Origin: Protonemura montana
Lineage: Eukaryota; Arthropoda; Insecta; Plecoptera; Nemouridae
Direction of reading: 5' to 3'
Length of the DNA: 64,000 bases
Assembly: GCA_947568835.1 (NCBI GenBank)
Contig: OX387608.1
Location: 4,316,001-4,380,000 of the forward strand
Shown: positions 4,208 to 59,630 of the stretch, in pieces
Layout of the letters: each line of letters starts with the position of its first letter
How positions within the stretch are numbered: the stretch's first letter is position 1
Translations under genes and position numbers: made by a program
The notes under the pieces: generated by a model
Databases searched by the model: none
The model's input: only the letters and a program-made list of their open reading frames with translations
What the model was told of the DNA's origin: nothing

Positions 4208-4212
4208 CTAGA

Positions 4213-12218: not shown

Positions 12219-12575
12219 ACCGGTCTAATGGCGTCGGTGGATGAGGGAATGATGATGACGATGACGATGAACCTAACCTAGCCTAGGAAGGAGAGGAAGA
12301 AACTCGGTGCCGGCACGTAGCCTACTCCTGTCGAAGAGCACCATGAGGAGACCACCGGCTTAACGTCCCTTCCGAAGGACGGTACAACGCGAACAACAGG
12401 ATTCCTACACAAATCCATGCTGTCGAGAGGTTGATAAGCAAGGCGAATGAATTTGCTGTACTAACTTTCATCCCTCCAACCTCTCCCCCAAACAGAACTG
12501 GTCATGTGTATGATGGTCACCCATCCAATACCTGACTCAGCGCAGTGTTGCTTAACTTCAGTGATCTCACAGAGA
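12219..12575 (-). mobile_element. 5S-headed SINE, copy a
   Basis: Read on the minus strand: a 5S-derived head (GTTAAGCAACACTGCGCTGA), a body with GTACCGTCCTTCGGAAGGGA, CGTTAAGCCGGTGGT and ACGTGCCGGCACCGAG, and a terminal ATCATCATTC / CGACGCCATTAGACC region. The distal CGTTAAACAC tail is missing. The head's box C-like TGGGTGACC remains. Confidence 0.85.
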
Positions 12576-13395: not shown

Positions 13396-13849
13396 CTTTG
13401 ATTCGACGAAGCAGTGAGGGGCTGGGCCTTTAAATTACCTAACCTAACCTACAAGTAGCATTGATGATCTGGCCTACCCCTAAGTTCCGGGTTTTCAGTC
13501 GTACGTTAAGTTTTTAACAGACAGTTCAGAAAAAAAATCCCATTCTGATTGGCTGTTGCCAAGGGAATAACGAGTTAACTGACTCGTTAAGACTTATTAT
13601 TTTTCATCGTTTGTGAAGCGAAATTAAGAGCAATTAAACTTAACTAACGAGAAACAAGAATGCAGGTCGCGTTACCTCAAAAGATGCAAATTCGGAGACA
13701 TTTTAGACCCATTTTTAACCGTTTCATCGGCGAATCCATTTCGTCTTCAAGTTTCATGCTATGGTGACCTTGAGACTGGTCCTTGAGAAAACCCCGTCAG
13801 TGAAGGTACCGAGTTTCCTTGTTTTAACTAAGAAACTTTGACATTGAAA

Positions 13850-14095
13850 TGAATTTGTGGAGGAATCCTGTTGTTCACGTTGTACCGTCCTTCGGAAAGG
13901 ACGTTAAACCGGTGGTCCCCTTGGTCTTCGACAGGAGTAGGCTACGTGCCGGCACCGGGTTTCCTCTCCTCCCTTCTAGACTAGGTTAGGTTCATCATCA
14001 TCCACTCATTCACCGACGCTATTAGACCAGTGCCACGTGGCCAGATGTCAAAACAGTGCGTCGTCAAACACAACAATCAAACACTCCTATGCATT
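13850..14095 (+). mobile_element. 5S-headed SINE, copy b (head missing)
   Basis: It starts inside the body at TTTGTGGAGGAATCCTGTTG, carries CGTCCTTCGGAAAGGACGTT, and runs to the full 3' tail AACAGTGCGTCGTCAAACAC followed by an AATC-rich end. The 5S head is absent, consistent with 5' truncation. Confidence 0.85.
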
Positions 14096-18690: not shown

Positions 18691-21514
18691 TGATCGGGAG
18701 AGAGTTGGATGGCTTTTCTCGCCGACCTCTCCGCTGCAAGTATTGGCGGAAATTATTTCTGTTTTTAAGGAAAAGACTAATTTGGTGGTGCCATTGTTCT
18801 AAAAGTGAAGAGTGAAGACCAAGCGTCTTTCATCTTATCATTGCATTGAGATGAAAGTAATTTGGTGATCAAATCGAGCACAAAGATGGCTGAGGGTGTC
18901 CCACCCTTTTTTGAAGATATAAATAATTGAACGCTTTCATTTGCGATTGGACTTCGAGCATTTCGAAAATTTTCTCTTGAAGCCCTTGTAAAGCCGGTAA
19001 CTTTGAAAAACTCTGCCTGATGGTGTTTTGACACCCGGCCCCTCGGGTTCCACTTAATCTATCAACACGGCCTCTCCGAGCATTCTGTCGCTGGGTATCA
19101 GCAAGTTGGGCTGTGAGATATTGCATTACACGTCAGCCAATTTCAATCCCGCTATGAACCCGTTCAGCAGCCATATTGGATGTGCATTGTAAGGCCGTTT
19201 CTGGTAATTTTCTGGCTGAAAATGGCCTAAATTGGTATTAAATTGGTTATGATTTCAGAAAAGAAAAAAAAACGCTTTGGCGTGAGCGATTTTAAGACAA
19301 CGGATCAAACATTTGGATTTTTTTTTAAATTGGGGCTAAAACAGATATGAAATACAATATGGAAGTTTGAGCAATTAGATTGGCTAAAAAGAATCACATT
19401 CTGGGTAAAAGCCCGAGAGCTAGCCTGCCCTAAGGCCTTCGAAAGGTTAAAACTAAATTACTCTAAGGAAACATATCTTAAAAAATTCAGCAAATTATCA
19501 ATTATTCACGGTTTTCATAAGAAAATAATGCGGCCAATTGTCACCACGTCCGCCACTGAGACCACGTGACAGGTGCAACCACTGTGAGTAATTGGTGACA
19601 TGTCACCGATGATAAAGGGAGAGAGAGACAGAGGGAATAAATGCAGTCCACACGCATGTCGCTTCTAGTCTAGACTGTCACCAATAAATAATTCAATAGT
19701 CATAGATTCGGGTGCTGCTGGTGATATGGCCCGGACTCGACTTGATTGGAATTGTTAATATCTGGAGAGATTTGAATTTCTAGTTCGATTTAAACCTAGT
19801 CTCGATTTGATGTAGGACGGAAGGGGGTCTTGGAGGCCATCAATTAGTAGCCATGAGACAAGGAAATGGGGGGGGGGGGACGTTATTTCTGGAATAAATT
19901 GTCTGCGATTTAAACCTGTCTCGAAACGTCTAAAGGCCCTTAACATTGAAATTTGTCTCTGTTATTTTGATTTGGTTGTGATTTTGAAATATCTGGCTGA
20001 TGTGCTTCTTGATGATTGGTATAGATGAGCGAATTGGTGACAATACCATCAGAGAGGTTGTAAGAAATCGGTTTCGCTTTCGGTCAAAGAAATCGGTCAA
20101 AGACTGAAATAGACGGATAAGGTAAAGAAGAGATGGAAGCCGTAGAACAATAATGAAAGGAAATTCGAAGCTAGAGGAAAATTGCCAGCAGAATTTACTC
20201 TAGGCTTGGGGATATTTCCACCTTCTCGTGGTAGTTATTACTAAAACATATTTCTAATTCTTACCGAGGAAAATCTACAGACTACAGAATCCTGTATGAC
20301 TGCCATTTAAATTATTTAGGTACCACATTACCATTTCTGAAAGCTTTAAGGACCACTCTACGCCTTTAGCGCTAATTTGGCAGACACTCTTACTTTCAGA
20401 AGCAAAGCCTTGCTAACATCAACATCGCCGACCGCATCTTCCCGATCCAACACAACAACAACAAAAAAACAGGTGCTCCTTAATTATTTTCGCAAGAATA
20501 CTGTTACCTCTAAGCTGTTACCCAACCACATAATTCGTTGGTAATCTACCAGTACTTGCTGAGTCCACCATGACACGAGGAAGGCGTTGATAAGGTTATT
20601 AGTGCGATCATTATCCGGTAATCTACATGTATTTTTTTTTTTTAATTCTAGAGAAACACATTGTGCTTTAAGAAATGGTCATTTTACATTTGTACGGTCG
20701 ATTACAAACTCGTCAATGTTGTAAAAACAGTGTTCAATGAGATAATTCTTCATTAAAAAATCACATTCGTTTTTACTTTTCAGTTCTAGTGCTAGTGTAT
20801 TGTAAAATAGGTCCATCTCCCAACCTTCCCTTGCCCCTCAAGATGGTCAAGGCTGAAAGAAGCATTCAATGCAGTGCTACTTTCAGGATATGGGATATGA
20901 ATTTATCCAATTTTCATAGTTTGAAACATGTGTTTTAAACTAAGGTGACTCTAGACTTGGACATATGAAACCCCAAGTATCCAATTGCCATTGTCTGTAC
21001 ATCAACTAAGGTTTCCTTCCGGTCACCCATTCAGAGCATGGTCCAGAACTCGTTAGTCTCTGTAAAAGCCTAATACATTACCCGAGGATCTGTCCGTGTA
21101 GATATTCAGTTAGTTTTCATTCTATCTTGAAAGGAAAGGGAGATTCCGTATAGGTAATCTAAGAGCAAACACGAGTAAATACTTTTAAAACTGCCTTCCA
21201 GGCAGGTGAAACGCTTTTCGACCAGTTTTACCAACTATTATCTCATAAGCTAACAGCAGAGGCCTCCTTAGGCTCGAGCAAAAGCCGCGCGTTGTGAAGT
21301 TGAAACAAAGTAGCATGCAACGGTGTATGCCCGGGCTGAAAGGAGCAGACTAGGTAGCGACCTTCGCCTCGGTAATTAACGCTGGGTTACCGTCATACTG
21401 GCTTACGTGGTCGTACAAACTGATCACTAGACCCATTCACAGAGATAGGAATGTTGGACTAGGATTCGTTTTTGGGGAGGTGGCAAGAGGTTCTTGGAGA
21501 GGTGGCAAAGAGTT
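18691..21514. other. Unassigned intron/intergenic sequence
   Basis: No supported gene. Short open frames on both strands lack splice context. A G9-G10 run lies at about 19869. Confidence 0.3.
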
Positions 21515-22026
21515 CTTCGATTGATTGATTGATTTGTGGTGTTTAACGACGCACTGTTTTGACATCTGGCCATGCGGCAAAAGCGTATGTGGATGAGTGG
21601 ATGATGATGATTCAACATAGCCCAAAAGGAAGGAGGGGAAACCCGGTGCCGGCACGTAGCCTACTCCTGTCGAAGACCAAGGGGACCACCGGCTTAACGT
21701 CCCTTCCGAAGGACGGTACAACGCGAACAGCAGGATTCCTCCACAAATCCATGCTGGCGAGTGAAGTTGCTGTACTAACTTTTATCCCTCCAATCTCTCA
21801 CCCGAACAGAACTGGTCATGTGTATTATAGTCACCCATCCAATACCTGATCCAGCGCAGTGTTGCTTAACTTTCATCCCTCTAACCTCTCTCCCGAACAG
21901 AACTGGTCATGTGTATGATGGTTACCCATCCAATACCTGATCCAGCGCAGTGTTGCTTAACTTTCATCCCTCCAACCTCTCTCCCGAACAGAACTGGTCA
22001 TGTGTATGATGGTCACCCATCCAATA
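21515..22026 (-). mobile_element. 5S-headed SINE, copy c (three tandem heads)
   Basis: The minus-strand tail GTCGTTAAACACCACAAATC and its ATCAATCAA end lie at the left. The body is intact (GGCACCGGGTTTCCCC, CGGAAGGGACGTTAAGCCGG). The head is reiterated at 91-bp spacing (ACTGGTCATG at 21811, 21902 and 21993). Each 91-bp unit joins a 5S box A-to-box C segment to a CATACACATGACCAGTTCTG segment. Confidence 0.92.
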
Positions 22027-25000
22027 GAGTTCTTGGGGATGCAGGCTCACAGTGACTTCGCGCAAATGTCAAGATGTAAGGTACATTTCTTTGCCATTGA
22101 TTTTTATTTTTGTACATCTGACAAGCTTCTGTTTTGCAATGCGATACTTTTTTGTGCAATTTCACCAACCTCTGGCAACACGTGTATTTCTTATAAGGAG
22201 AAATAATAAATAATAATAAATACATCTACAACAATGACTCATTTGACAGGTATGCCAGCCTCGTATCAACTCCTGTCTAACTAGACCACAATCTCGCAAA
22301 ACAATGTCTTTGTCACCCTTGAAGAATGTCATCTCGAAGTGCTTAGGTGAGAGTGTGTTTTCAAGTTCACTGAGGTAATTTGCCAGTAATTAGCATACGC
22401 TGTAGACATATGCTAAGTACTTGATGTATACGCTAGTCGTCGCTACGAAGTACATCACTCAGCAGTTGTGGGAATACTTTAATTATTACATGCAAAATCT
22501 TATGCACTTAATCGAGTGGCATTGCAATTTCTCTGTGCAGGCCTGGGGAAGTAAATGAAAATAGTATATGAATGAAGGTATTTTTGACGTTTCTTGCGTT
22601 TTTTCACTATAAACCTATAAATCAGCCAGATTCTGAAGACAGTACCACTTACTGCAATAAGAAGCATATCAAAGAAGTTTCTGATTGACACTTGTATTCA
22701 GCTAAAACGGTAAAAAATTTAACTTGATGTCGTTAAAATGTGCTAATAATTTAATTTCAAAGTAACTCTGCTCCCCTCTCAGAAATGGTGAACCGAAATT
22801 ACCGCCTTTGTGTCGCGTTACACCGGCCCACGGTGGTCGACATCGCTTTTTGGACATAATTTGGCGGCATTTACTCCTCCCTGTCAGTGGTCCATGGCGA
22901 GTTGAGTTTGCCAAGATCAAGTTTTCCGTCTCAGCTTCTCCATAGTCGCCGTTTAAATCCCACACGGCGAAACATTATATCTTGTTGTAATCTGGCGATC
23001 GTGGATGCCGAACTACTTGGACACTTGAGTGGTCAGAACCTTCGGAATCTTCTACTTGTTGATCTCTTGAAAGCACCCGGTGTGTTACCTGAATCAGATG
23101 CTCTTTAATCTATGCCTGAACGTATCCCATGATTTAAACCACTTTTAAACGAATGATAGATTTATTTTTATTTATTTAGTATTTCAGTTTAATAATTCCT
23201 ATATGCTGTGGATCACAATATCGGTGTACGCGAAGAGTATTTTTTCAATGTTTCTTGTCAAAGGTGAAAGCTTTGAGAACCAAAATGAATGTCAAGAGTT
23301 TTTTTTTTTCAAAAAAAAATGGGAATCACTATAATTTGTTCGGTTTGCTGACCGTTGTTGAAAAAGCACTTACATTTGCGAGCTAACATTTAAATTAAAC
23401 GTTTCATCACAGGTTTCATGAAGCAAAATATGAAAATATCGCTTACAAGAGGACGAGCTCCCTCATTGCTCTTATCTATATACCACTCCAGCATGATCTA
23501 AAAACAGAAAGAGAAAAAAATGCATGCAACCCATTTTTACAATACACTTAGCTAGCATTTCATCAACGCCAACCCCAAGCCATCGCCCCACAAACAACAA
23601 CAAAAACAACCCCCCATTTGAAGATCATATCCGATGTCATTTCCCTGCGTAACGCCTCCCACCCTTCTCCCCCCTGGCGCCCGACGACCCTCGACGTCGG
23701 TAGTCGCGTGGCCAGCGTCGGCGTACGTATCAATCAAGCCGTCGGTCCGGCGCACGCGACGCCGACGCCGCTGATAAGCAGCAGGCGTCGCGACGCTATT
23801 TTTAGCCGGCGAACTGGGAACGACGGCGAGCACGTCCGCCTATGCCAACATGCTTGGGTGCTGATCCAGTGGGGTGCGGACAGACTTAGGGCGAGGGTTA
23901 ATACTTCGTGTCCCATATTTGAAGGTCATAGACAATACTAAAAATTGTTCATCTTGATCATATCTTAGTATAAGAAGGGGGGGGGGGGGGGGATGGGATA
24001 ATTATACTAACTAGGATCAAAAAAAGACAGTCTGTGTTAACTAAACCACAAATTTGCTATAAAAATGCGTCTTAGCAAACGATCTCACACTAGGATCCAA
24101 CTATTAACCGTTGGTCATACATTTCAGATCATGAAACGCGTTATCTGACATAACCTAGCCATATAAAATGAATTAAACCATGTACAACCTGCCATGACTA
24201 GATATTCGGCACCACGCCACTACACCACTGCTAACTTTATCACAACGCAGGCCGCCACTGTTTGTTCACGTATCGCTTTCCCATGTCGATCTCGCTGGTA
24301 AACCGAACTGGGTGCATGTGTCCCCTGCAGAACGTCACTCGACGCTGTGATTACAAATACTCATCGAATCCGACCGATATGCGTCGGTAGCCGAGACTTT
24401 CGCCTTCATTCATGGGATCGATACGTGAGAGGCGGCCTAACAGTGGAGGCCGAGCATTCGCGTGCTATCACGTTCGTTTGTTGGGACAGTTTTACAAAAA
24501 ACGAAAGTAATATTGGATATACTAGTAGGTTTCGAGTTGTGGTTGGCCTTCTTCGGGGTGAGGTCGCGGGTATTGTGTTTTATTTGTTGTGTTTGCATGT
24601 TGGTGAATGATTCATTGTTAAAACCTATTTTTTTTTTTATGTAAAATGTCACTTGTTGCCAGCTATATTTGCGGTTTAAGTCACTTTCAAAAGAATTTGA
24701 TTGGAGACAGAGGAAAATCCTGTTAGTTTACAGATATGGAAAGTGGCATTGCTTATGGTCAATGAAATTTACGATGATGGCATTTGCGGTCATGATTAGG
24801 AATAAGATATTTCGATAGAAAAATGTAGTACTCGTGTTTTACTATCAATTAAATTAATCTTATCTTGTATTTATAAAGTAGCATTTATATAGAAATAGAT
24901 CAGCACAACACTGAACATCTGTATCGAAATTAAAAAAAAAAGGTATGAATTAAAAAGTCACTAAACAAAAACTTATCTGCGATAATAAATAACAACCTTT

Positions 25001-25990
25001 AGCTTTCCTTGATTACAAACAATGGCAATTTCAGTCATCGATTCGTGTGGCCTGTAAATTGATGGCAATTGAACTTGCCTGGCATCGGCGCTATCAGTTG
25101 TCAAGAAATTGATAAGTGTAAAAATAAGTACACACACTGTGAAGCGGTGAGCGTTGACTCCCAACTGTTCTAGGACGTGAAGGTCATTGCATACTGGCGG
25201 CTCACCTACCGATTTAGATGGATCTGCAACCTTTTCTCAAGATCTACCGTCTCTAAGACGTTGCTTGCCGGGGTAATGTACCACTAGAATGGTAGTGGAG
25301 GTAGTGAACGAGTCCTCATGAATGGAAGCGAAGAACAGAAGGGTGGAGGAGCCAGGTTGGTATATACCCGTGCATATTAGGACAAAAATGAGTTATGATT
25401 TATGTAACTCGATTCGCAGAGTTTTTTTTTTTTTTTGTTTTTTATGAGCGAAAAAATAGATATGTTTGTCACGGAAAGCACAAAGGAAACTGTGAGAACC
25501 AATGGCATACGAAGTTATTCCCGAACAAAGGAAAATGCAAACGGCACAGCTGGAAAATCGGCCAAAAATCGACCACAAAAGAAAAAATGTTATTTGAGAA
25601 ACACAAACCTTGTTGAAGAATCCAGAAGCTTTGACCAGTTCTACCATTCCACACGCGGGCACAGATCTCCAGATAGCGAGTGAACAAAAAATTAACACCA
25701 GCCAAGCCACCAGTTCCCTTCCCCAAACGCGTGAGACACAACAGCAAAAAAACAAACACAAATCCTTTAAAAAAAAAAAAAATCCAAAAGTCCTAACGCA
25801 CTATTTCCCGAGTTACGCCGACGTCCACGCACGTTTACGCACAGCGACTACACATTACGCACGTTTCACATTAGTGTGTAAACGTCGAGCTACACGCACA
25901 ACAGCTGATCGATGACTTGGTTTCAGTCTACGTTGCTGTTCTCTCTGTTGTTTGGCTGATTTGCCGTCACGCCTGGCAAGGAGTTACACG

Positions 25991-26032
25991 GACGATGTTC
26001 ACTCCAGCTCGGTTCAACACAAACTGAATCCT
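25991..26032 (-). promoter_or_regulatory. Possible arthropod Inr/DPE core promoter
   Basis: On the minus strand, ATTCAGTTTG matches the arthropod initiator TCAGT, with A+1 at 26025. At +28 to +33 the sequence is ACATCG, which fits five of six DPE consensus positions. The surroundings (25.80-26.09 kb) are CpG-rich. No transcript or donor was tied to it. Confidence 0.25.
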
Positions 26033-27511
26033 AGCGACCGCTCTCTGCTCTCCGCGCCAACGTAAGCTACGTCACGGAGAGTGTGTATATGCTAGGCCAC
26101 TATGTCGCCTTTTTTTTTTGCTGCCTTGCCACTCTTTTTATTATTATTTAACACTGGGCGTGCTCGTGGAGCGATGGTGCTGCTATCTCTGCGGCGACGC
26201 TGGTAACTTTTGAGGAGAAGCAGGAAAATTGCTTGGCGTTTGGGTGTTTACGGGTGTTTTTATGTGGTACTGGTATTGGGTGGTTATTTGTGTGGGTGGA
26301 TTATTCATAGACTTGTTTTTTTTTTTATCTGTTTGGGTGGCTGTGGATAAATTGTTGTTGGATATCACGTTTTTTTTTTTAGATACAATTTTTAAAAAGT
26401 AATGCTTTTGGCTCTGACGGTCCATGGGGCCGACGCCGGGGATTGAGATACCAGTTCGGTTTTGTTTCATGTCTCCTGCAAAACAAAGAGCATGCTCCCA
26501 TGGGATATGGAAAGATTATAGAGAACACCTTTCGCTTGTAGGATGGGAGATGGTGCGCGTGTTCGGGATTTATTGTCCAGTTTGTTTGTGTTGTTGAAGA
26601 TAAAAGGGGATGAAAATAAACTGAAATCTCGCGTGAACCATAAAGCGCCGAAGGGGTGGTGGAGGGGAAGGGGGCACTTGAGCCTATTTCCTTCGTTTTT
26701 GTCGACGGTAGGCGTCGGATGACGGCGACGCCAGGGCACGTTTATCGCTCGTCTTAGCACGGCCAAGTCGTGCTTCTTTGGAAGCCGGTAAAAAATGGAT
26801 TAGAACAGTTTTTTTCTTGAAATAAACTTGCTGTCGGTTCGACTCAGAGCTGGATAATTTTGTGAAATTAATAGCTTCACAATTTATGTGTGTGCATGGT
26901 TTGTAAATATGTTGAAACCGGTATGTCTAAGGAATGGTAATTTTGAAACAACGAAATTTTTTACTTGAAATTGTATTTGTTCCGACCACCGGGGAAAAAA
27001 ACTAAACAGTGACGTTCAATTAATTTTGGGATTAGACAAAAAAAATGCACTGGTGTTTGTCTAGAAGTGGTTTTTCCATTATTCCAGGTTTATGTCCGGT
27101 GATGCTGAGGGGAATGAATTCACTCCTGGTGTCCGGAGAACTAAAAAATAAATTTAGGTCGTCGGGATGGTCGGGTTTCTTGAAGCATGTGGTAAAACTG
27201 ACAGTAAAAAAGCTCTAAAAAAAAAAACTCATTCAAAAAGAACACGAACAATTTAAGCTAACCTCCCTTCAAACCCTCCCCCTCACCCTTAGCTCACACC
27301 CGAATAAAAGTTAATTAAGAGGATCTCGTTTTTTTTACTCCAACACTAAAAAAAAATACCATAAATCGAATACTTCCCTAGAGCAACCCATCGAACATCC
27401 CAACCCGTTCCTTTTATTCCCCTTCAAATTGACCATCCCCGAAATCGTCTTCCCCATTCAAAACTTGCAACACACCCTCGAGTCGACGACGCCGACGACG
27501 CCGCCGACGCC

Positions 27512-27518
27512 TATAAAA
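27512..27518 (+). promoter_or_regulatory. TATA-like box in a CpG-rich patch
   Basis: TATAAAA follows a run of GACGCCG repeats (27480-27511). A CAGTG initiator-like motif is about 46 bp downstream, further than usual. The match is weak on its own. Confidence 0.18.
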
Positions 27519-28137
27519 TCACCGTCGCGTTGCAACCTTGGGCGCCTCCACGCAGTGTTGGTTGCGCACGGTGGTAGCCCCCCCACCCAGCAAGGGTCGG
27601 GTTGCTCTCGTAGCGCGTAAAACGAGCCAGCGTGGGCGTTTAGGGAGGTTGACGGGGGGCAGGGGGATGCCACCCCCCCGGCTACGCTACGATCACTACA
27701 ACTAGAAAGTCACGACGTTCGGAGCGATAGAGAGTGGGCATCTGCTCTCGAACGGACTATGCCGAGAACGCACTAAAATGGTAAAATCACAGTAGAAATC
27801 TTCTAAAATTGTCCGAAACTACAATAGATTTAGATTTTTTTCGTTTTTTTATTGATCACAAGTGTGATCTCGAAATAAACCAGAGTGACACGGCATATAT
27901 TTACAAATATTTTTGCTTTTCAAGACATATATATATTTTTTTAGTTATGCCACTAACGTTGCTAGAAAAAGTATTGACTAGCCATTCGCTAAAAAAATAA
28001 GAATTATTCACTGTCAATCTGAGTGAAATCCGGAAACACATCCCGGGATCGTACGCCCTCTCCCAACCCTTATGCACCCTCGGCACAAACCGAAAAGATC
28101 CTTTCACAACCCGTTCCCTCCTGGCAACCCCCTTCCA

Positions 28138-28154
28138 AGGGGGGGGGGGGGGGG
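28138..28154 (+). repeat. Poly-G tract
   Basis: An uninterrupted run of about 17 G, with G-rich sequence again at 28206-28220. A local G-quadruplex is possible. Confidence 0.85.
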
Positions 28155-28239
28155 GTACGGTGTAGCTCAGCCCGGGTGCTGCGACGTAGTTTCATCCCTC
28201 TGTATGGGGGGGGAGGGGGGACGGCAGCTCACCAATGCG

Positions 28240-28320
28240 CTCACCAACGTGGAGCTCTTGCGGGATCGTCGAGGTTAAGCAACATAGTACTCGATCACTT
28301 GGCGGATGGGTGACCAACAT
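28240..28320 (+). pseudogene. Divergent 5S rRNA-like fragment
   Basis: GATCGTCGAGGTTAAGCAAC followed by CGGATGGGTGACC at the spacing found in 5S rRNA. The middle is diverged. A single relic with no SINE body attached. Confidence 0.55.
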
Positions 28321-29321
28321 GCTGAATAAACTTTTACATATGAGTCAAAATAAAATTTATTATTTAGAGAATAGTTCTGAAGTATGATTTATGTTAATAT
28401 TGGTCTTGAAAGTCATCGAAGTTGAGTATAAGACCCTCTGGTGTTGGATGAATGGATGGCCATTTGTTTTCTAATAACGTACAGTTAGGAAGCTATGTTT
28501 GTTTAAAAGGTGCTGTGAGTAAAGCGTTTTCTTAGATCCATGAGCGAATTTCAACTTTTCACCGCAAGAATCTGGAGGGTAATCGACCGCACCAAAGATT
28601 TTTGGAAACGACATCGTGATTCTGTTGAGTCGTACAAGTTGTCCTTCAGAAGAGTCGTTATGTCATCTAGAGACCTTAGAAGCCTTTATATATTCTTTAA
28701 TTCTGTCAATAATTAATCCTAGAGGCTAACCAACATTTAGTCTACGGTGAAAAATGGTATTTTTTAATATGGATTCGCAAAGAAATGCACTATCATTGGA
28801 ATTTTAGGGTGCTTTTTGGTGTATGGTCTGTTAGTCTTGGCCCTTTGAGGCCGTCTTGCAAAGAGTTCTCCTATCAAACTGGTCGGCCCTTTAAGATGTC
28901 ACGTGGCTTATCAGCTACAAGAACCTTATGGGAAAGCGATCGATGTGCATCGAGCTATTCCTGGGTTTATGACGTGGCTTTGGACGTTGCAAGTTATGCT
29001 CCAATTTGATTGAAATGATTTGAAAAAATGCGCGTTTGGGGAAGATAGTAAAGAATATGGGGCAATATAGGGTAAATAAAGTTATTTTTTTAAATACTTC
29101 TAATTACTGCTTCCATTTGAATATCTCACGATCGTTCATTTGAAAACTATGACATCAAGTAGACATGAGTCTAAAAACCATCACTATGGCTGTACTTTTT
29201 TGCATAGAATAGGTACTTATTGAAAATTGTACCTGAACTTCACTGTTGCTTATAAAAGGTATTATTCAATTTTCCCTTATGCAATTACAAAGCACAATTG
29301 ACACGTAAATTTAGGCCCAAA
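28321..29321. other. Unassigned sequence
   Basis: No supported gene. It contains TAGACATGAGTCTAAAAACC at about 29159, an end fragment of the palindromic element family. Confidence 0.3.
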
Positions 29322-29702
29322 TGTGATTTGAAACTATTGCCATGGCGACTTCCAATCACATGCAGTGAAATTCCGATGTTTCTGTGAGTTAGAGATCCAA
29401 CTTATAGTTGAAAATTTTGTTGAAACTGTTGCCATGACGACTTCCAATCACATGCAGTGAAATTCAGATGTTTCTGTGAGTTAGAGATCCAACTTATAGT
29501 TGAACATTTTGTTGAAACTGTTGCTATAACGACTTCCAATCACATGCAGTGAAATTCAGATGTTTCTGTGAGCTAGAGATCCAACTTATAGTTGAACATT
29601 TTGTTGCAACTGTTGCCATGACGACTTCCAATCACATGCAGTGAAATTCAGATGTTTCTGTGAGTCAGAGATCCAACCTAAAGTTGAACATTTTGGTAAA
29701 AC
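29322..29702 (-). repeat. 92-bp repeat, locus 3 (about 4 copies, inverted)
   Basis: The reverse complement of the 92-bp unit, about four copies. It ends at ATTTTGGTAAAAC (29690-29702), identical to the border at 1510-1522, followed by the similar CAGACC / TGGACC context. The other border is not recognisable. Confidence 0.92.
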
Positions 29703-30654
29703 CAGACCTAAATACAATTATAAAAGAAAATCTAACGGTTCAAAAAACAAAAATGTATAGATCTAAAAATTTGCGCAAAAATATGGCGAAAACAAAGAAA
29801 CCGCCGAGCAAAAACAAAAGCCTGCAGATTTCCAATCTCGATAGAGGCAAACACAGACAATCACTCAATACCTCTTGCCTTTATTGATATGCGCCTATAA
29901 AAACTATAAAAATTCACTTGTTTAACTTTAATAGCTGCCAGGCCAAGCCATGCCACGTCAAAACACCAACAGCTGGTTTATTTCTAAGCATGATTGGATA
30001 TTTTCGTGCCAGAAAACGATTGAGATAATCGTATTATTAGATCACAGCGAAGCTTTTCTTGAAGGCGCTCGACTTTTCCAATCTCTCTCATGCTTTGTAC
30101 GCGACGACCGGTCGACTTTTCTTTATAGTGACGACCTGGAGTTCAGTTTTTTTCGCCCACAAGCTGCTCAGGGGGTGGGTGAGGGTGGGGGTGGTTATGA
30201 TAAGAGTTTGTTGTAGCTCGTGAGAGGGGGGGGGGGGGGGGCGACTGAATGGGAGAGCGTAACGCGATTTCGGAGAATCTCGTGTCTGATTTTCAGTTTT
30301 TTTTTTTTTGCCTAACGTCTAGAGTTGCTTTTTATGTCTAGGCACATAATTTGTCTCGACGTCTCGGGCTAGTGGCGAAGTTCGGTCTTGATTTGGAAAT
30401 CTGAGGCTGAGACGCTTGGTATACGTTCATTACTTCTCATCTGAAAATGCTTTTTTTCTGTTTTCTCTCGAGCGTCTCAGGTGCCCGATGTGACTTTTAT
30501 CTCAATTTATGAACTTGTTTTCAGTTTTGCGCCTAATCGAATGACAGTTCACGTGCTGCTTGCGATCCTTTTCAATTTTCTCACAACCTGGTCCGTGATT
30601 GCTTAACTTTCGGTTGCTTTTGACGAAGTGCAATTTTATCATTTCATTTGATTT
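29703..30654. other. Unassigned sequence with a poly-G tract
   Basis: A G-run of about 14 lies at 30228-30241. No supported gene. Confidence 0.3.
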
Positions 30655-31182
30655 CATTTGTTTGATTATTGTTTTTAACGACGCATTGTTTTGACAACTG
30701 GCCATGTGGCACTGGTCTAATGGCGTCGGTGAATGAGTGGATGATGAACCTTACCGAAACTAGAAGGGAGGAGGGAAAACCCGGTGCCGGCACGTAGCCT
30801 ACTCCTGTCGAACAGCACCAAGGGGACCACCGGCTTAACGTCCCTTCCGAAGGACGGTACAAAGTGAACAACAGGATTCCTCCACAAATCCATGCTGTCG
30901 AGAGGTTGATAAGCGAGGCGAATAAATTTTCCGTACTTTCATCCCTCCAACCTCTCTGCCGAACAGAACTGGTCATGTGTATGATGGTCATCCATCCAAT
31001 ACCTGACCCAGCGAAGTGTTGCTTAACTTTCATCCCTCCAACCTCTCTCCCGAACAGAACTGGTCATGTGTATGATGGTCACCCATCCAATACCTGACTC
31101 AGCGCAGTGTTGCTTAATTTTCATCCCTCCAACCTCTCTCCCGAACAGAACTGGTCATGTGTATGATGGTCACCAATCTAAT
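30655..31182 (-). mobile_element. 5S-headed SINE, copy d (three tandem heads)
   Basis: The tail (GTTTTTAACGACGCATTG read on plus) and body are complete. Three 91-bp head units have ACTGGTCATG at 30968, 31059 and 31150, and each of the first two carries the CAGCG(C/A)AGTGTTGCTTAA segment (minus-strand 5S box A). Confidence 0.92.
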
Positions 31183-31844
31183 AGAGTGCATGTTGCCTGA
31201 CCCTAAAACAAATCTCTCCCTTCACTGACCACTCTAAACAAAAGCAAATAACTTTTTGAAAACTTTCAATTCAACTTCGTAAAAATCTGGTCACTCTCAC
31301 TTTGCAGAACAAAGGAACGCACTTCCCACCAGAAAGTCACAGCATATTACGTTCTCAGCTCGGGGGCCAGGAAAACCGACGCCCGCCGGCTGACATCGAT
31401 TTTCCCACTGATTTTCCCGCGTGGAAAATCTACGTTAAGCCTCGAGGAAAACTCGCGTCTCGAGTGCAGCACATGCCAGTCGAGGTCACGTTAAAGCGTA
31501 AGCAACTCAATTTCCATAGTCGAGGTCACGCTTGAAAATCCATCTCTCAAGGTCAATTCCTAAAATAAAAGCGGTCTCTCTCTTGCCAGAGACCGGTCGT
31601 AGGGGGCTGAGTAAAGAGGGTCGGGGGAGAGGGTTGTTCCCCCCCCCCTCCCCCGAATCCAACACTGAACATCAATGGAGGATCTCGCACCCAGCCGCCG
31701 TTGCCATGGCAACTAATCTCTCTCTCGCTTCCTCTCTCTCGGAGCGTACGCCGTACGTTTTGAATTACGACGTAGGGATCTGCAGCCCGTGGACCGTGTG
31801 CCGAGTTGTGCTGAATGAAAAGTGGTAATAGTGAACTGTATAGT
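31183..31844. other. Unassigned, partly CpG-rich sequence
   Basis: Positions 31360-31520 are CpG-rich with GGAAAA/TTTTCCC motifs. A C-run lies at about 31638-31647. No supported gene. Confidence 0.3.
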
Positions 31845-31916
31845 AACTGAACCGGGATATGAGCCCAGGACCTCCCAATTGCCGGTCGGGTGCTTTACCA
31901 ACAGAGCTATCCGGGC
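31845..31916 (-). pseudogene. tRNA-like sequence (tRNA relic or SINE head)
   Basis: On the minus strand: GCCCGGATAGCTCTGTTGGT (acceptor start and box A), an anticodon arm CCCGA-CCGGCAA-TTGGG, and a T arm CTGGG-CTCATAT-CCCGG. The 3' acceptor strand does not pair, position 33 is not T, and box B is mutated. This is therefore a tRNA relic, or the head of a SINE extending to the left, not a working tRNA. Confidence 0.7.
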
Positions 31917-32166
31917 ACAAATCTTCCGGCTTTCGTGGGGTGGGATAAGAGATCCATTTATAGGGTATCAAAAGGATTTTTTTGCGTGCATGTTTAACAA
32001 GTTGTCGGCGTTTTAATTCCTGGCTTGATTTTATGTGTGACGGGCTTTTCAGTGGGAATGCAAAAGATTTGTGGTATCTTTAGTGAAGTTCAATAACTGC
32101 AGAATTACTTTTTGTAACTTTCTGATCCCTGGTTGTGTTTTTAGGGACAATAAAACATAAAAAAGG

Positions 32167-32574
32167 GTGAAAAAAAGTGACGCCATAAACTGGTTTTTGC
32201 TTTTTTTTTTGTTTTATGACACCTTAAGTGAAAATGTCTTGATCAATTCAGCTGTTCACCTTTCAATTCTTGGTTTAGGTCCAAAAGACCTCAGCAAACA
32301 AGAAAATAGGAAAAAAAACTTGACAAAAAGGGCAATAAAAGAAAATTCACTGCAAATATCCACCGTATCTTCTATAAAAGACCTTCTCGAAAAATTGCGA
32401 AACAAAAATACGTTGACCAATAACGAAAATATTGCAAATCGGACCCAAAACTCGCAAAATGCTTTTTTTTCCACGTGTGAATTTCCACCAATCGCGAGAG
32501 TTTGCTGGAAAAACGAGCGATGGAAGCTGCAACATGCATTTCATTACGTAATTCCTGGATGTATTAACATTTAA
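32167..32574 (+). other. AT-rich open frame of 135 codons, unsupported
   Basis: A Lys/Asn/Ser-rich frame opening on GTG. An acceptor-like TTCTTGGTTTAG lies inside it at about 32278, so the part from 32279 could be an exon. No domain is recognised, and chance is a fair explanation. Confidence 0.15.
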
Positions 32575-32769
32575 CAAGCAGTTTTAACATTAAAAAGTGT
32601 ATATTTATTGTTGATGCTAATCGTGGCTGGCTTTTAAAAACCCCTTCTGTGTTTGAAAAATATCACGACATGTACCAGCATTACACGTTGGTGTGGCTTA
32701 TCGTATAACAGAACAAAATTACAAAGTAGAGTTATCGCAAATAAAACGCGACACGAGGTCGATACAGTG

Positions 32770-33300
32770 CCACGAGCACCGAATTTAAGCAACACTACGT
32801 TGGGTCAGGTATTGGATGGGTGACCACCGAAAGGTTTGGCGTGTTGGAAACACAGGTCCTCGTGAGATCACCGAAGTTAAGCAACACTGCGCTGGGTCAG
32901 GAATTGGATAGGTGACCACCGAACGGTTTGGCGTGTTGGAAACACAGGTCCTCGTGAGATCACCGAAGTTAAGCAACACTACGTTGGGTCAGGTATTGGA
33001 TGGGTGACCACCGAAAGGTTTGGCGTGTTGGAAACACAGGTCCTCGTGAGATCACTGAAGTTAAGCGACACTGCGCTGGGTCAGGTATTGGATGGGTGAC
33101 CACCGAACGGTTTGGCGTGTTGAAAACACCAGTTCTCGTGAGATTGCTAAAGTTAAGCAACACTGCGCTGGGTCAGGGATTAGATGGGTGACCACCGAAC
33201 GGTTTGGCGTGTTGGAAACACCGGTCCTCGTGAGATCACCGAAGTTAAGCAACACTGCGCTGGGTCAGGTATTAGATGGGTGACCACCGAAAGGTTTCCA
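32770..33300 (+). repeat. 5S rRNA-derived 92-bp tandem array
   Basis: TTAAGC of the box A-like segment recurs at 32785, 32877, 32969, 33061, 33153 and 33245, exactly 92 bp apart. Each unit reads, in order, GGAAACACCGGTCCTCGTGA, GATCACCGAAGTTAAGCAAC, TGGATGGGTGACCACCGAA and CGGTTTGGCGTGTTG. It aligns to about positions 15-100 of 5S rRNA, including the internal promoter (boxes A and C). The ends of the true 5S gene are missing. The open frames through it are artefacts. Confidence 0.93.
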
Positions 33301-33530
33301 GGCACCAGGGTATCATTAAGTTATTATTTTTTTCAAGCAGATATGGTTTTCATTTTTTGTGAGGCATTGCTAACCTAACTAAACCTAACCTTACCTAACA
33401 GGCAACATGACAGCCCTACGGTGTCCCTCCTCTCTTCTCTGCTAAGCTAGGTCCACAATCTATAATTTACCCATTTCAAAGCCCAATGCCAAAAAATTGC
33501 TTCGTTAAACACAATAAATCAATCAAACAG
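33301..33530 (+). mobile_element. Degraded SINE body and tail after the 5S array
   Basis: It contains CCCTCCTCTCTTCTCTGCTA-AGCTAGG, like the body's CCCTTCTAGGCTAGG, and ends CGTTAAACACAATAAATCAA. This suggests that the array at 32770-33300 is the multi-head of a decayed SINE. Confidence 0.6.
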
Positions 33531-33959
33531 CAGTGGGACAAAAATGACAGTCATTGTGACAAGAATGACGTCGCCACTCGACGCTACCGACACCGTCGTC
33601 GCCCGGCGAGCGTCGAACTATAAGTAGCGGCTATTTCAGGACGTCGCGACGCCAGGGGGGGAGGGGGGAGGGGGTCGAGTTCGATTCCCCGCGCGTGCAG
33701 CACACGAGTGAGGCGTTAGTAACCTGGCGCCGGCATGGAAAGGAATGCAGGTCTGACCTCGAATACATTTGCATTTTCATTTAGGCCCGTTTAGAAAATG
33801 TTTCGCAAACAAAAGTTACGGTGCACACAAAAAACCCTTTTTAAACAGAGTTTTGAATGCTAAGTGAAGAAAAACTTAACAACTTTCAGCGCGTTTTTGA
33901 GTATAGATTGGGAAAGAAAATAGTTAGGAGGCTCCTTTATTTTTAGGTTGATTAATTGA
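33531..33959. other. CpG-rich patch and unassigned sequence
   Basis: Positions 33565-33675 hold CGTCGCGACGC and G-rich runs, similar in wording to 23690-23810. At 33848-33875 is a fragment of the palindromic element family (TTTTGAATGCTAAGTGAAG). Confidence 0.35.
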
Positions 33960-34585
33960 GTAATTATTGTGTTTAGCGACGCACTGTTTTTGGCAACAGA
34001 TCCTGATGCACTGGTCTAATGGCGTCGGTGAATGAGTGGATGATGATGATGATGATGATGATGAACCTAACCTTGCCGAAAAGAGAGGAGGGGAAACCCG
34101 GTGCCAGCACTTACCCTACTCCTGTTGAAGAGCACCAAGGGGACCACTGGCTTAACGTCCCTTCCGAAGGACTGTACAACGTGAACAACAGTATTTCTCC
34201 ACAAATCCATGCTGTCGAGAGGTTGATAAGCAAGGCGAATGAAGTTGCTGTACAAACTTTCATCCCTCCAACCTCTCTCCCGAACAGAACTGGTCATGTG
34301 TATGATGGTCATCCATCCAATACCTGACCCAGCGCAGTGTTGCTTAACTTTCATCCCTCCAACCTCTCTCCCGAACAGAACTGGTCATGTGTTTATGATG
34401 GTCACCCATCCAATGCTGACCCAGCGCAGTGTTGCTTAACTTTCATCTCTCCAACCTCTCTCCCAAACAGAACTGGTCATGTGTATGATGGTCACCCATT
34501 CAATACCTGATACAGCGCAGTGTTGCTTAACTTTCATCCCTCCAACCTCTCTCCCGAACAGAACTGGTCATGTGTATGATTGTCT
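33960..34585 (-). mobile_element. 5S-headed SINE, copy e (four tandem heads)
   Basis: Complete tail, body and four head units (ACTGG at 34289, 34380, 34472 and 34563, spacing 91/92/91). An (ATG)8-like expansion at 34039-34063 enlarges the usual ATCATCATC of the body and gives a poly-Met frame that is not a gene. Confidence 0.93.
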
Positions 34586-35415: not shown

Positions 35416-35827
35416 AAGTATGAAAGAAGTTGGTGAATGAATCGGAGTACATAGAAGAGGAAAAATGATTTTACACAACCAAGTCACGCGCCTCAAATAA
35501 AATATTTTCTACGTGTTTTAATTAATTGATGAAAAATAAAATCGCTTACAAAAATACTTCTAATTCAGCAACATCAGCCGCTTCGTGGATTCTCTCTCCT
35601 GCAGCTATGAAATTATTCATCTGGAATCTCTACTCGATTCTAGATCGTAGACCCAATTAAAAGCATGGCAACGGAAATCGTCAGGCTTCCTGAAATATTC
35701 ATCCCGTCTTGGCATCGGTCGGCCGGGGGGTAATTTAAACTCACTCTGTGGCTAGAGACTGAACCTGGTCTCTCTGAAATTACTTTACACGAGTAAAAGT
35801 TGGGAGAAATTATTCAGTCTATGGCTG

Positions 35828-36107
35828 GACAGTTTGGCGTGTTGGAAACATCGGTTATAATTAGATCACCAAAGTTAAGCTACTCTGCGCTGGGTCAGGT
35901 ATTGCATGGGTGACCATCATACACATGACCAGTTCTGTTCGGGAGTGAGGTTGGAGGGATGAAAGTTAATACAGCAACTTCACTCGCCTCGCTTATCAAC
36001 CTCTTGACAGCATGGATTTGTGGAGGAATCCTGTTGTTCGCGTTGTACCGTCCTTCGGAAGGGAGGTTAAGCCGGTGGTCCCCTTGGTCTTCGACAGGAG
36101 TAGGCTT
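35828..36107 (+). mobile_element. 5S-headed SINE, copy f (3'-truncated)
   Basis: It begins with the full 5S-type head (GGCGTGTTGGAAACATCGG, CACCAAAGTTAAGC, GGGTGACC), then CATCATACACATGACCAGTT, body to TCGACAGGAGTAGGCT, and stops. This shows the canonical order: 5S head, linker, body. A tail piece in the opposite direction (GTGTTTAACGACGCA) is at 36238-36252. Confidence 0.9.
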
Positions 36108-46400: not shown

Positions 46401-48234
46401 TCAGTCGCGGACACCTCTCCTCTCCTCAGAGCTATTTATACAATTCAGGCCAACAATGCAATCTTTTTTAAACACTCGAAGACAATTGGACGAAATCCAC
46501 AAATGCACATTCTGTCAACACATTCACGTAAAGCGGCGTTTGCAGAAACTGAAAAGTCATCAACGTGCGAAATCACGATTCAACTCGAGTGTAACCGACG
46601 AAAAACTCTTTCAAAAAATCTAGGAATGCCAAGTCAATAAACCTTAATTCACATTTAAAAAAAGCATGTTCTCAAATCAAAAATACATTGAACACCGGTC
46701 AAAAAAAAACGAAGAGCGCCGGTCATGAACGCTAGAGCCAGACTAAACGCCTTCGTCCTTCGAGACTAGAAGGAACCTTGCTAGGCCGAACGGTCCTGCG
46801 AGTATGCGGTGTGGGAAAAATACCAAAAGTGTTCAAACACACGTTCGTTTTTGTCGGGGGGCCGAACCAGACCACAGAGGAATGTCTAACGCGGCAATAC
46901 AGAATCGAAAAGCTCGCCGATCACACAGATCTGAAGCGAAACCGCCTAGAGGCAATCGTACTATAGTAGACCGTCTTCAAAGCCACGCTCGATCTTACTG
47001 AGCTATTATTAGGATGGCTTCTCTGTTCTCACTCCACAAGAACGCACTGTACAACCTTCCTGCCCTATCCCTACCATCGCCGTAGTCGCTAACGTAGACT
47101 GCCAGCCAGCAAGCTTACTACAACAATACTACTAACTTTACTACGTCCCTCAATAGCGTAGACGTGCATCTTAGCGCCGCGCGGGGGAGGGGCGTTCGAA
47201 GGGGTCACCCCCCACCGCGAGACCTATTCTTATATCGCTTGCCAAACACTTGAAATATCTTCTACGAATCCTGCGCGGCTCCGTGTATTTGCTCGGGTGG
47301 AGAAAGGTTTCTTCTTATTTTTTTTGTTTGATGTTTTGTGTAGGATCGGTCACTTGTCGGCTTTGGAATGGTTGGGTCTATTGCCACCCTTGTGGAAGGG
47401 GAAAAACGAGGGTCATTATTCTTTAACTTTACAAAAGTTTAGAATGTCAGAAGAATCAGGTAGTTTATGTATCTTCCATGCATAATTCGTTGACAAAAGC
47501 TGGTAAAAGCAATCGGCATACAGGGTTTTTGTTGCAAAAAGTCAAGCCTATAGGACAGTGGATGTGGACGTCAGCAACAATCATGGATTGCATAATCACA
47601 ACTTATTTCCCTGGTATTACCACGTATTACCCATTAAAGTCCAGTGCGTGATTAATTTGACTAAAAATAAACTGGAACAATTATGATTACAAAGAAGGAT
47701 GCGCTAGTAGATTGTATGAATCACAGAGTTGTTTGCAGATAGCCATGGGTTCGATTCCAGCTACTCTCTCGGCACAGAATCGCAGCCTGAAATTAATTTC
47801 TAATGACTGGTTTATGGGCTGTTTGGTGCGATTTGATGCCGTGGGCGTTGCACCTTCAGCATTCCGTTGAGTTCGTGTTGAGTTGGTGGCGAGTGTCCAT
47901 GTCTGGTAGGATTTCTCTTCAGGGCAAAAGCCTTCCAAAAATTCGTATTCTTCGAGTCGAGGCGATGGCGTTTGAAATTTGACAACGTCTGCTAGGTTTT
48001 TTTTGGTCTCTATAAATGAAATTGAGGCTCTCATCAGATCAGAATTATAGTTTTGCTGAATGTCAAGGCACAAAGCGATAGGAAAATCCCCATAGAAACA
48101 TAGGAATCAGAAACTACCGAAAGACACAATCAATTTGACAGGCAATTATTCAAGCCATGAATATTTTATATTATATTAAAATTACATTTTTTATAATTAT
48201 AACACATGTAAAACGTATAAACCTCGATTATTGT
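46401..48234. other. Unassigned, partly CpG-rich sequence
   Basis: CpG-richer DNA at 46.7-47.25 kb, including a GC-rich block at 47175-47220. It could belong to a promoter region with the donor at 46270. The short open frames overlap one another in different frames and are not supported. Confidence 0.28.
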
Positions 48235-48757
48235 GGTTAACTACGCACTGTTTTTGACAACGGGTCCTGATGCACAGGTCTAATGGCGTCGGTGAATGAG
48301 TGGATGATGATGAGGATGATGTTGAACCTAAACTAGACTAGAAAGGAGAGGAAGAAACCCGGTGCCGGCACGAAGCCTACTCCTGTCGAAGAGCACCAAG
48401 GAGACCACCGGCTTAACGTCCCTTCCGAAGGACGGTACAACTCGAACAACAGGATTCCTCCACAAATCCATGCTGTCGAGAGGTTGATAAGCAAGGCGAA
48501 TGAAGTTGCTGTACTAACTTTCATCCCTCTAACCTCTCTTCCGAACAGAACTGGTCTTGTATATGATGGGTAACCCATATGATGATCGCCTGACCCAGCG
48601 CATTGTTGCTTAACTTTGTTGATATCATGAAGACCGGTGTTTCCAACGCGCCAGACCGTTCGGTGGTCACCCATCCCATACCTGACCCAGCGCAGTGTTG
48701 CTTAACTTCGGTGATCTCATGAGGACCGGTGTTTTCAACACACCAAACCTTACGGTA
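48235..48757 (-). mobile_element. 5S-headed SINE, copy h (mixed head types)
   Basis: Tail and body as in other copies, then one CATACACATGACCAG-type head, then further 5S-type heads with the CGTTCGGTGGTCACCCATCC and AACACACCAAACC junctions of the 92-bp type. Both unit types therefore occur in one element. Confidence 0.9.
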
Positions 48758-52736: not shown

Positions 52737-52916
52737 TCCCATCCAATGCCTGATCCGGCGCAGTGTTGCTTAACTTCGCTGATTTCACGAGGACCGGTGT
52801 TTCCAACACGCCAAACCGTTCGGTTGTCACCCATCCAATACCTGAACTAGCGCAGTGTTGCTTAACTTCGGTGATCTCACGAGGACCGGTGTTTTCAACA
52901 CGGCAAACCATTCGGT
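52737..52916 (-). repeat. Two 92-bp 5S-derived units without a SINE body
   Basis: On the minus strand, two units with GTTAAGCAACACTGCGC, TGGGTGACAACCGAACGG and GTGTTGGAAACACCGGTCCT. They match the array at 32770-33300. No tail or body is seen nearby. Confidence 0.9.
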
Positions 52917-59232: not shown

Positions 59233-59630
59233 GCCTTGGCGTGTTGGAAACACCGGTTCTCGTGAGATCACACAAGTTAAGAAACACTGCGCTGGGTCAG
59301 GTATGGGATGGGTGACCACCGAACGGTTTGGCGTGTTGGAAACACCGGTCCATCATACACATGACTAGTTGTGACAGAGGTTGAAGGGATGAAAGTGGAG
59401 GAATCCTGTTGTTCGCGTTGTACCTTCCTTTGGACGGAACGTTAAATCGGTGGTCCCCTTGGTGCTCTTCGACAGGAGTAGACTACTTGCTGGCCCCCGG
59501 GTTTACCCTCCTCCCTTCTAGAGTAGGTTAGGCCCATTATCACCCTCTCGTACACCGATGCCATTTGACCATTGTCACAGGGCCCGGTCAAAACAGTGTG
59601 TCGTTAAACACCTCGAATCAACCAATCATG
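59233..59630 (+). mobile_element. 5S-headed SINE, copy j (complete)
   Basis: One whole 92-bp-type head, a second partial one (GGCGTGTTGGAAACACCGG), then the CATCATACACATGACTAGTT linker, a shortened body (GGAGGAATCCTGTTGTTCGC, CGTTAAATCGGTGGTCCC) and the full tail CAGTGTGTCGTTAAACACC with an AATCAACCAATC end. It shows 5S unit, linker, body and tail on one molecule. Confidence 0.92.

What the first reader, a model, noticed from the sequence alone, without database searches (positions are those of the whole stretch)
21515..34585. 5S rRNA-derived SINE family with tandemly multiplied heads
About eleven copies in 64 kb share a 5S-like head, a body with CGGAAGGGACGTTAAGCCGG and a CGTTAAACAC tail. 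Copies c, d and e carry 3, 3 and 4 head units at 91-bp spacing, while others have one. Each head keeps the 5S internal promoter boxes A and C. Multi-head SINEs of this kind could drive transcription from several promoters or arise by template jumping. 5S-headed SINEs (SINE3 type) are known in fish and a few other animals; a variable-number head in an arthropod-like genome looks unusual.
Basis: partly seen in the sequence, partly recalled or inferred. Interest (0 to 1): 0.72.

Follow-up and report, generated by a model that had tools for sequence, protein, structure and literature searches.

The report
5S-headed SINE with multiplying heads
An abundant "jumping" repeat in what looks like an arthropod genome starts with a piece of 5S ribosomal RNA gene, and, mostly near contig ends, that promoter-bearing piece has multiplied into tandem arrays of 2 to more than 40 units: a mobile element in the act of turning into a satellite.

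Summary
Here h5+h3 is a truncated copy of the genome's own 5S rRNA gene (72 of 89 aligned bases), and the tandem 91-bp unit is h3 (box A, IE, box C) plus 49 bp of body (X). Copies c, d, e hold 2, 2 and 3 full units plus a 5'-truncated one. Genome-wide, 24,988 unit-unit junctions face 8,280 unit-body joints. Target-site duplications flank single- and multi-head copies alike, and two 5'-truncated copies were very probably multi-headed when inserted. Unit number also changes locally: private unit haplotypes recur only inside single elements, and copies with n>=2 crowd one end of contig C1 (12 of 24 against 1 of 58 inside). Best reading: a SINE3-type 5S SINE whose head became a minisatellite, spread by retrotransposition and expanded by slippage or unequal exchange. 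SINE-derived subtelomeric satellites are known in squamates; a 5S-headed, apparently arthropod version with a full type-1 promoter per unit is a new variant. Multi-promoter function is untested.

The parts
21516..22026 (-). Copy c: tail and body 21516-21779; units 21778-21868 and 21869-21959; 5'-truncated unit 21960-22026 starting ATTGGATGGG
21509..21517 (-). 3' target-site duplication of copy c (AAGAACTCT)
22026..22034 (-). 5' target-site duplication of copy c (AAGAACTCT)
30658..31183 (-). Copy d: tail and body; units 30935-31025 and 31026-31116; truncated unit 31119-31183
   Evidence: no clear TSD
32774..33297 (+). Type II array: about 5.7 copies of a 92-bp full 5S-like head unit
33298..33524 (+). 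Different body with a tail like the SINE family's (CGTTAAACACAATAAATCAATC)
   Evidence: in the held loci only a 30-bp piece of this body recurs
33950..34584 (-). Copy e: tail and body; units 34256-34346, 34347-34438 and 34439-34529; partial unit 34530-34584
   Evidence: no clear TSD
35824..36106 (+). Single-head copy (h5-h3-X-body, body truncated)
48233..48752 (-). Copy with two 5S-like heads, the second partial, then X, body and tail
52738..52915 (-). Two type II head units without body
59226..59628 (+). Copy with one full head, a second partial head, X, body and tail
12260..12570 (-). Single-unit copy with diverged h5 (h5 remnant judged by eye)
13849..14086 (+). 5'-truncated copy (body and tail)

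Best explanation
This is a 5S rRNA-derived (SINE3-type) SINE whose head behaves as a mobile minisatellite. The basic element is h5-h3-X-body-tail. SHOWN: a junction between the end of X (GATGAAAGTTA) and box A (AAGTTAAGC), which share AAGTTA, makes a 91-bp unit holding box A-IE-C plus 49 bp, and this junction occurs about 25,000 times. Multi-head copies are flanked by target-site duplications about as often as single-head ones. Unit number changes locally, because mutated units or blocks of units recur inside one element and, in two of three cases searched, nowhere else in the genome. DEDUCED: two 5'-truncated copies (L005; window copy c) begin inside a unit that is followed by another unit, right beside a TSD, so the inserted template already had several heads. 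INFERRED: transcription by Pol III from the 5' head through all units (unit and body consensus contain no TTTT); mobilisation by a LINE (not found); growth and shrinkage by slippage or unequal exchange, favoured near contig (taken as chromosome) ends, leading to short satellites (46 or more units).
For: Own 5S genes score 108.7-117.5 bits (47 matches scored of 52,711 candidates); the head has 72 of 89 aligned bases identical and its 5' end lies near 5S +1. Genome counts, 19-letter patterns, <=1 mismatch: 24,988 X-h3 junctions, 8,280 X-body joints, 8,802 h5-h3 joints; the body motif gives 9,366 at <=2 mismatches; reversed-pattern controls 0 or 1. TSDs of >=11 bp (<=1 mismatch): 9 of 29 copies with n>=2 and 15 of 40 with n<=1, against 1.2% of 815 mismatched pairs. 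L005: an exact 14-bp TSD abuts X position 8 of an element with 7 full units. Unit pairs sharing >=2 rare variants: 72 of 1,648 within elements, 39 of 29,978 between. Two such haplotypes occur in 258 Mb, as exact matches, only twice each, 4x91 and 2x91 bp apart in the same element. Two inverted paralogous loci share a 5' flank (613 of 624 aligned bases) but hold 3 and 5 units. Copies with an exact unit junction: 12 of 24 at C1 0-2.6 Mb, 1 of 58 at 2.6-19 Mb; the region effect remains after allowing for body divergence (64 copies, LR p=4e-9). A 15-bp array from another microhomology (TGACCA) inside the same unit, 85.7 copies or more, fits the same process (L002).
Against: A third unit haplotype (2 variants) occurs in 11 places forming five or six clusters on four contigs, so variants also travel between loci; local growth and transposition cannot be separated for every array. 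Multi-head RNAs evidently insert, yet interior C1 copies are almost all single-headed; whether expansion, contraction, insertion bias or selection causes this is not shown. Position data for the 91-bp unit come from one contig, mainly one end of it, and the far part listed (19-22.43 Mb) gave 0 of 18. For type II junctions 46 of 60 loci lie in the outer 20% at each contig end (40% expected), but on the window's own contig C11 only 5 of 17. In the fitted model younger copies carry more heads (divergence given region p=0.003), the opposite of steady growth with age. The uniform junction is partly by construction, since the genome-wide spacings come from a search for that junction. The L028 pair may reflect recombination with another copy rather than a simple change of n. 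No partner LINE was found. No RNA data.
Confidence: 0.68

Rival explanations
1. Template jumping or slippage of the reverse transcriptase adds heads at each round of insertion, so unit number is set at insertion. (Not exclusive with the best reading.)
For: Multi-head copies are bounded by TSDs. Type II junctions (GGTGACC joined to ACCGAACGG, the SINE 5' end) look like a jump from an RNA 5' end; 2,144 such junctions at <=3 mismatches. L005 and copy c were very probably multi-headed when inserted.
Against: Same unit order throughout the body-motif-selected loci L001-L028. Private unit blocks duplicated as blocks 2 or 4 units apart. Strong position effect at matched divergence (0.04-0.10 band: 11 of 15 distal, 1 of 18 interior).
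Confidence: 0.2
2. A multi-head subfamily simply became the active lineage; distal location reflects insertion or retention bias of young copies. (Not exclusive with the best reading.)
For: Of 16 copies with body divergence below 0.04, 14 are multi-head. Tails of distal copies are mostly AAAT-type and those of interior copies more often ATCA-type (by eye).
Against: The region effect persists within divergence bands. Locus-private expansions are not explained by a subfamily alone. No subfamily tree was built.
Confidence: 0.25
3. The tandem promoters are selected because several type-1 promoters raise Pol III output or give each internal 5S promoter a fixed upstream context.
For: Box A is the least changed segment (0.024 against X 0.029 and C box 0.039). 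Published reasoning that lone 5S SINE promoters depend on upstream signals (PMC3272025 and PMC8010984, passages read).
Against: The IE region is the most changed segment (0.061) and the C box changes more than X. The two h5-less multi-head copies with clear TSDs start at different places. Single-head copies are numerous. No expression data.
Confidence: 0.08
4. Assembly artefact.
For: None found; raw reads were not available.
Against: Arrays at many loci with different units, lengths and flanks.
Confidence: 0.02

Closest known systems
SINE-derived satellites (sSats) of squamate reptiles (Vassetzky et al. 2023, PMC10702118; abstract, two of three parts of Results, Discussion read)
   Same: Tandem units cut from part of the SINE, in snakes head plus body; variable number; alternating locus-specific unit variants; subtelomeric preference; a longer terminal unit reaching a SINE end
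   Different: There tRNA-headed (Squam) families; in snakes a 67-nt unit with box B, and both SINE ends kept only in minor variants. Here a 5S head, a full box A-IE-C set per 91-bp unit, both SINE ends commonly kept with TSDs, and an apparently arthropod genome
SINE3-type 5S SINEs of insects (HaSE3, PxSE4/PxSE5, SINE3-1_TC; PMC3272025, PMC8010984, PMC10886601; passages read)
   Same: 5S-derived head with boxes A, IE and C, unrelated body, short tail repeats; TSDs reported for some copies
   Different: No tandem heads are mentioned in the passages I read ('tandem' has 0 occurrences in the main text of PMC3272025 and of PMC8010984). Direct sequence comparison with Repbase was not possible
PcP190, a 5S rDNA-like satellite of frogs (PMC11675491, start of abstract in a search listing only)
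   Same: Tandem units with a 5S-like conserved region and an unrelated variable region
   Different: About 190-bp units with a 120-bp 5S-like part; the listed abstract start says nothing of a SINE
SVA and human TE-derived minisatellites (PMC3389668, passages read)
   Same: Variable-number tandem repeat inside or derived from a retrotransposon
   Different: The SVA repeat is not a Pol III promoter (recalled)

Membership tests
SINE3 (5S-derived SINE) | 5' head homologous to 5S rRNA with boxes A, IE and C | tested here: met
   72 of 89 aligned bases to own 5S; Rfam 36.1-51.9 bits in the window. Box limits are recalled, placed by alignment to 5S
SINE3 (5S-derived SINE) | Short, non-coding, dispersed in thousands, flanked by TSDs | tested here: met
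   9,366 body motifs; TSDs in 24 of 69 copies at >=11 bp against 1.2% null. Coding capacity was not tested formally
SINE3 (5S-derived SINE) | 3' tail shared with a partner LINE | tested here: inconclusive
   Simple-repeat tail present; no LINE with this tail found in held loci, no RT-family genome search run
SINE3 (5S-derived SINE) | Pol III transcription | not testable with these tools
   No RNA data; no TTTT in the consensus of unit and body (read)
SINE-derived satellite (sSat) | Tandem unit is a portion of a SINE, shorter than the SINE | tested here: met
   91-bp h3+X unit of an element of about 430 bp
[quoted passage not shown]
   L016 has 46 units and runs off the held stretch; L061 21.7; L049 13
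SINE-derived satellite (sSat) | Alternating or blockwise unit variants within loci | tested here: met
   L005, L049, L058, L061; private
SINE-derived satellite (sSat) | Preference for subtelomeric regions | tested here: inconclusive
   Met on C1 and for 46 of 60 type II loci over six contigs, but only 5 of 17 on C11; whether contig ends are chromosome ends was not tested

The most novel reading that the evidence does not exclude
The multi-head form is a working adaptation of a 5S SINE: each added unit brings a complete TFIIIA-type promoter whose upstream flank is always the preceding unit, freeing the element from its dependence on random upstream DNA. The resulting unit arrays would also form a large genomic pool of TFIIIA binding sites near chromosome ends.
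Probability: 0.08. Interest if true: 0.75.

Novelty: new variant of a known kind. Interest (0 to 1): 0.45.

Why it matters
[quoted passage not shown] This genome shows the same path in another animal, apparently an arthropod, with a different promoter class and with the stages side by side: one-head insertions, 2 to 7 heads inside SINEs with clear TSDs, and arrays of 13 to 46 or more units. That makes satellite birth from a SINE, its dependence on chromosome position, and any effect of promoter number directly testable.

Tried and rejected
Assembly artefact: rejected on distinct arrays and TSDs, without reads. Whole-head tandem only: rejected for c, d and e (unit is h3+X). Slow growth of heads with age: not supported as the main driver, because single-head copies are on average the more diverged; in the smaller first sample all 8 copies below 0.04 were multi-head, in the larger one 14 of 16. 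Internal-promoter initiation from 5' starts: too few TSD-bounded h5-less multi-head copies to test. Partner LINE: of five ORFs from held loci scanned against Pfam one matched (AXH) and none an RT family, an RT-looking ORF in L019 included; the ORFs beside the tail-only place at 43315 were listed but not scanned; tails without a SINE body in held loci were inspected by eye; a tail-variant search gave four hits, the window's own and three further copies of this SINE. No RT-family search of the genome was run. Stronger conservation of promoter boxes: not seen consistently. A paper search joining minisatellite, SINE, tandem expansion, subtelomeric and internal tandem repeats returned 0. I found no printed account of 5S-headed multi-head SINEs in searches, which cover only open-licence papers and show capped lists. 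No subfamily tree was built. Organism not identified.
Full report
WHAT WAS CHECKED. The window is G000:C11:4316001-4380000 of a 258-Mb, 34-contig genome with no name given. The body motif of the finding occurs 9 times in the window at <=3 mismatches (0.00 expected). TRF and Rfam find the 91/92-bp arrays and seven 5S-like heads, five of them above the family cut-off. Copies c, d and e contain 2, 2 and 3 full 91-bp units plus a 5'-truncated one each.

ANATOMY. Cutting the element into h5 (5S 5' part), h3 (5S boxes A-IE-C), X (49 bp), B (body) and T (tail) shows one prevailing layout in the held loci: h5-(h3-X)n-B-T, sometimes with extra h5-h3 heads in front (L013, L054), sometimes truncated or broken. 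Full-length copies begin ACCGAACGGTTTGG, which aligns near +1 of the genome's own 5S gene; 72 of 89 aligned bases agree over the head unit. Own 5S genes score 108.7-117.5 bits, 47 matches being scored of 52,711 first-look candidates; the window heads score 36.1-51.9. The X-h3 junction joins GATGAAAGTTA to AAGTTAAGC through AAGTTA. The type II unit joins GGTGACC to the element's own 5' end.

GENOME-WIDE. With 19-letter patterns at <=1 mismatch there are 24,988 X-h3 junctions, 8,280 X-body joints and 8,802 h5-h3 joints, and 2,144 type II junctions at <=3 mismatches in 35. These counts include arrays without a body. Of 69 successive spacings under 2 kb in the first 100 listed junctions on contig C1, 61 are exact multiples of 91; they come from a search for this very junction, so they cannot reveal other junctions. 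Unit numbers run from 1 to 7 in copies with a clear TSD, to 9 in others (L014, L017, L058), to 13 (L049), 21.7 (L061) and at least 46 (L016, which runs off the held stretch). A listed X-body joint at C1:990116 lies about two units beyond the L016 array, which therefore seems to end in a SINE body; that stretch was not fetched.

TRANSPOSITION. Exact TSDs of >=9 bp were found in 11 of 40 copies, 8 of them multi-head, against 0.6% of mismatched pairs. With one mismatch allowed and >=11 bp, 9 of 29 copies with n>=2 and 15 of 40 with n<=1 have one, against 1.2% of 815 mismatched pairs; copies too near a locus end were left out. Two blemishes: window copy c enters the nine through a different 11-mer than its 9-bp TSD, and L024 and L040 are duplicates of one locus (93.5% identity over 804 bp), so the fifteen count one insertion twice. 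L005 (7 full units, exact 14-bp TSD abutting X position 8) and window copy c (9-bp TSD abutting the C box) start inside a unit followed by another unit. A truncated single-head RNA would not give that order, so the inserted templates were very probably multi-headed. This is a deduction from the sequences.

LOCAL CHANGE. Unit pairs sharing at least two rare variants (variants in over 8% of the 252 units set aside) are 72 of 1,648 within elements and 39 of 29,978 between. Blocks recur: L058 units 4-5 and 8-9; L049 units 7-8 and 10-11; L005 units 3 and 5; L061 with a period of about five. Two such haplotypes were searched as exact patterns through the whole genome and occur only twice each, in the same element, 364 and 182 bp apart. 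A third, with two variants, occurs four times in L019 and also at C3 (two clusters), C12 and C15, 11 places in all; the C3 and C12 arrays that were fetched differ in their other units. In L028, two inverted loci share 613 of 624 aligned flank bases but hold 3 and 5 units; the 5-unit arm lacks a TSD, so recombination with another copy is possible. L002 holds a 15-bp array (85.7 copies, reaching the locus end) from a TGACCA microhomology inside the same unit.

POSITION AND AGE. On C1 an exact junction lies upstream of 12 of 24 copies at 0-2.6 Mb, 1 of 58 at 2.6-19 Mb and 0 of 18 at 19-22.43 Mb, where the capped list ends (Fisher 12/24 against 1/58, p=3.6e-7). Anchored on the core motif instead, the figures are 11 of 19, 1 of 28 and 2 of 6. 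I then fetched 20 copies from 2.59-7.77 Mb and 12 of the 13 unheld ones below 1.9 Mb; n>=2 in 0 of 20 and 9 of 12. The copy at 2.59 Mb counts as distal (cut at 2.6 Mb) and interior (cut at 2.4 Mb). In 73 copies with measurable body (body spans outside 110-260 bp dropped), 14 of 16 with divergence below 0.04 are multi-head; between 0.04 and 0.10 it is 11 of 15 distal and 1 of 18 interior. In a logistic model of the 64 C1 copies both region (p=4e-9) and divergence (p=0.003) matter. Listed exact type II junctions, grouped by hand, form 60 loci on six contigs, 46 in the outer 20% at each end against 40% expected: 21 of 21 on C1-C4, 20 of 22 on C5 (many close together), but only 5 of 17 on C11, the window's contig; the capped C12 rows were dropped. 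That contig ends are chromosome ends is assumed.

MECHANISM. Most likely the 91-bp junction arose once or a few times by microhomology, was carried by retrotransposition, and behaves like a minisatellite that changes in number by slippage or unequal exchange, mainly near chromosome ends. Template jumping may have made the first type II junction, because it joins the exact 5' end. Why interior copies are nearly always single-headed is not settled: less expansion, contraction, insertion bias and selection all remain possible. Promoter use of inner units is untested; box A is the least and the IE region the most changed part of the unit.

KNOWN RELATIVES. Vassetzky et al. 2023 (PMC10702118; abstract, two of three parts of the Results and the Discussion read) describe SINE-derived satellites in squamates with SINE-portion units, alternating variants and subtelomeric preference, and call restriction to squamates uncertain. 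5S SINEs are known in insects (PMC3272025, PMC8010984, PMC10886601; passages read). The present case differs in its 5S head, in a full box A-IE-C set in each unit, and in commonly keeping both SINE ends with TSDs. That the genome is an arthropod is a guess from CCTAA-type repeats in L015 and from recalled 5S sequences; the species is unknown.

Noticed in passing
G000:C11:70-105743: Own 5S genes lie in a repeated pattern of about 9.5 kb at the contig end, roughly three 5S genes per repeat (two forward, one reverse), which suggests 5S linked to another tandem gene cluster.
   Followed up: no
window 928-1489 and 29328-29702; 1-716, 39956-40799 and 61077-61519; 10420-11203: Three other tandem families (92, 114 and 41 bp units) recur as short arrays, the 92- and 114-bp units at several places in the window; matches to all three also lie in fetched loci (92 bp: L027; 114 bp: L015; 41 bp: L001, L014, L016, L052), so several minisatellites here are dispersed repeats.
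   Followed up: partly
L028:3867-9154: Inverted duplication of about 650 bp whose arms each run into a copy of the SINE with the same 5' flank, with 3 and 5 head units.
   Followed up: partly
L002:1-1285: A 15-bp minisatellite of about 86 copies or more, grown from the SINE's own TGACCATCATACACATGACCA stretch.
   Followed up: partly
L029, L052, L057 (copy at 987): Some h5-less copies start at CCGAAGTTAAGC, next to an internal repeat of the 5' end motif ACCGAA; deletion between the two ACCGAA motifs would explain this.
   Followed up: no
window 3213-4289, minus strand: Open frame ending in an AXH (Ataxin-1) domain, 52.4 bits, a likely gene piece.
   Followed up: no
window 37680-37824: Long hairpin that weakly matches a microRNA family, MIR821 (44.4 bits, cut-off 249); the arms look like an inverted repeat, possibly a MITE.
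   Followed up: no
window 31844-31916, minus strand, and 35256-35331: A tRNA-like sequence (34.9 bits, cut-off 29) and an ARAGORN tRNA-Ser(cga) call, the latter inside what looks by eye like a longer inverted repeat.
   Followed up: no
L006:2012-2952: A 14-bp array GTGACGTTAAACAG resembling the SINE tail motif.
   Followed up: no
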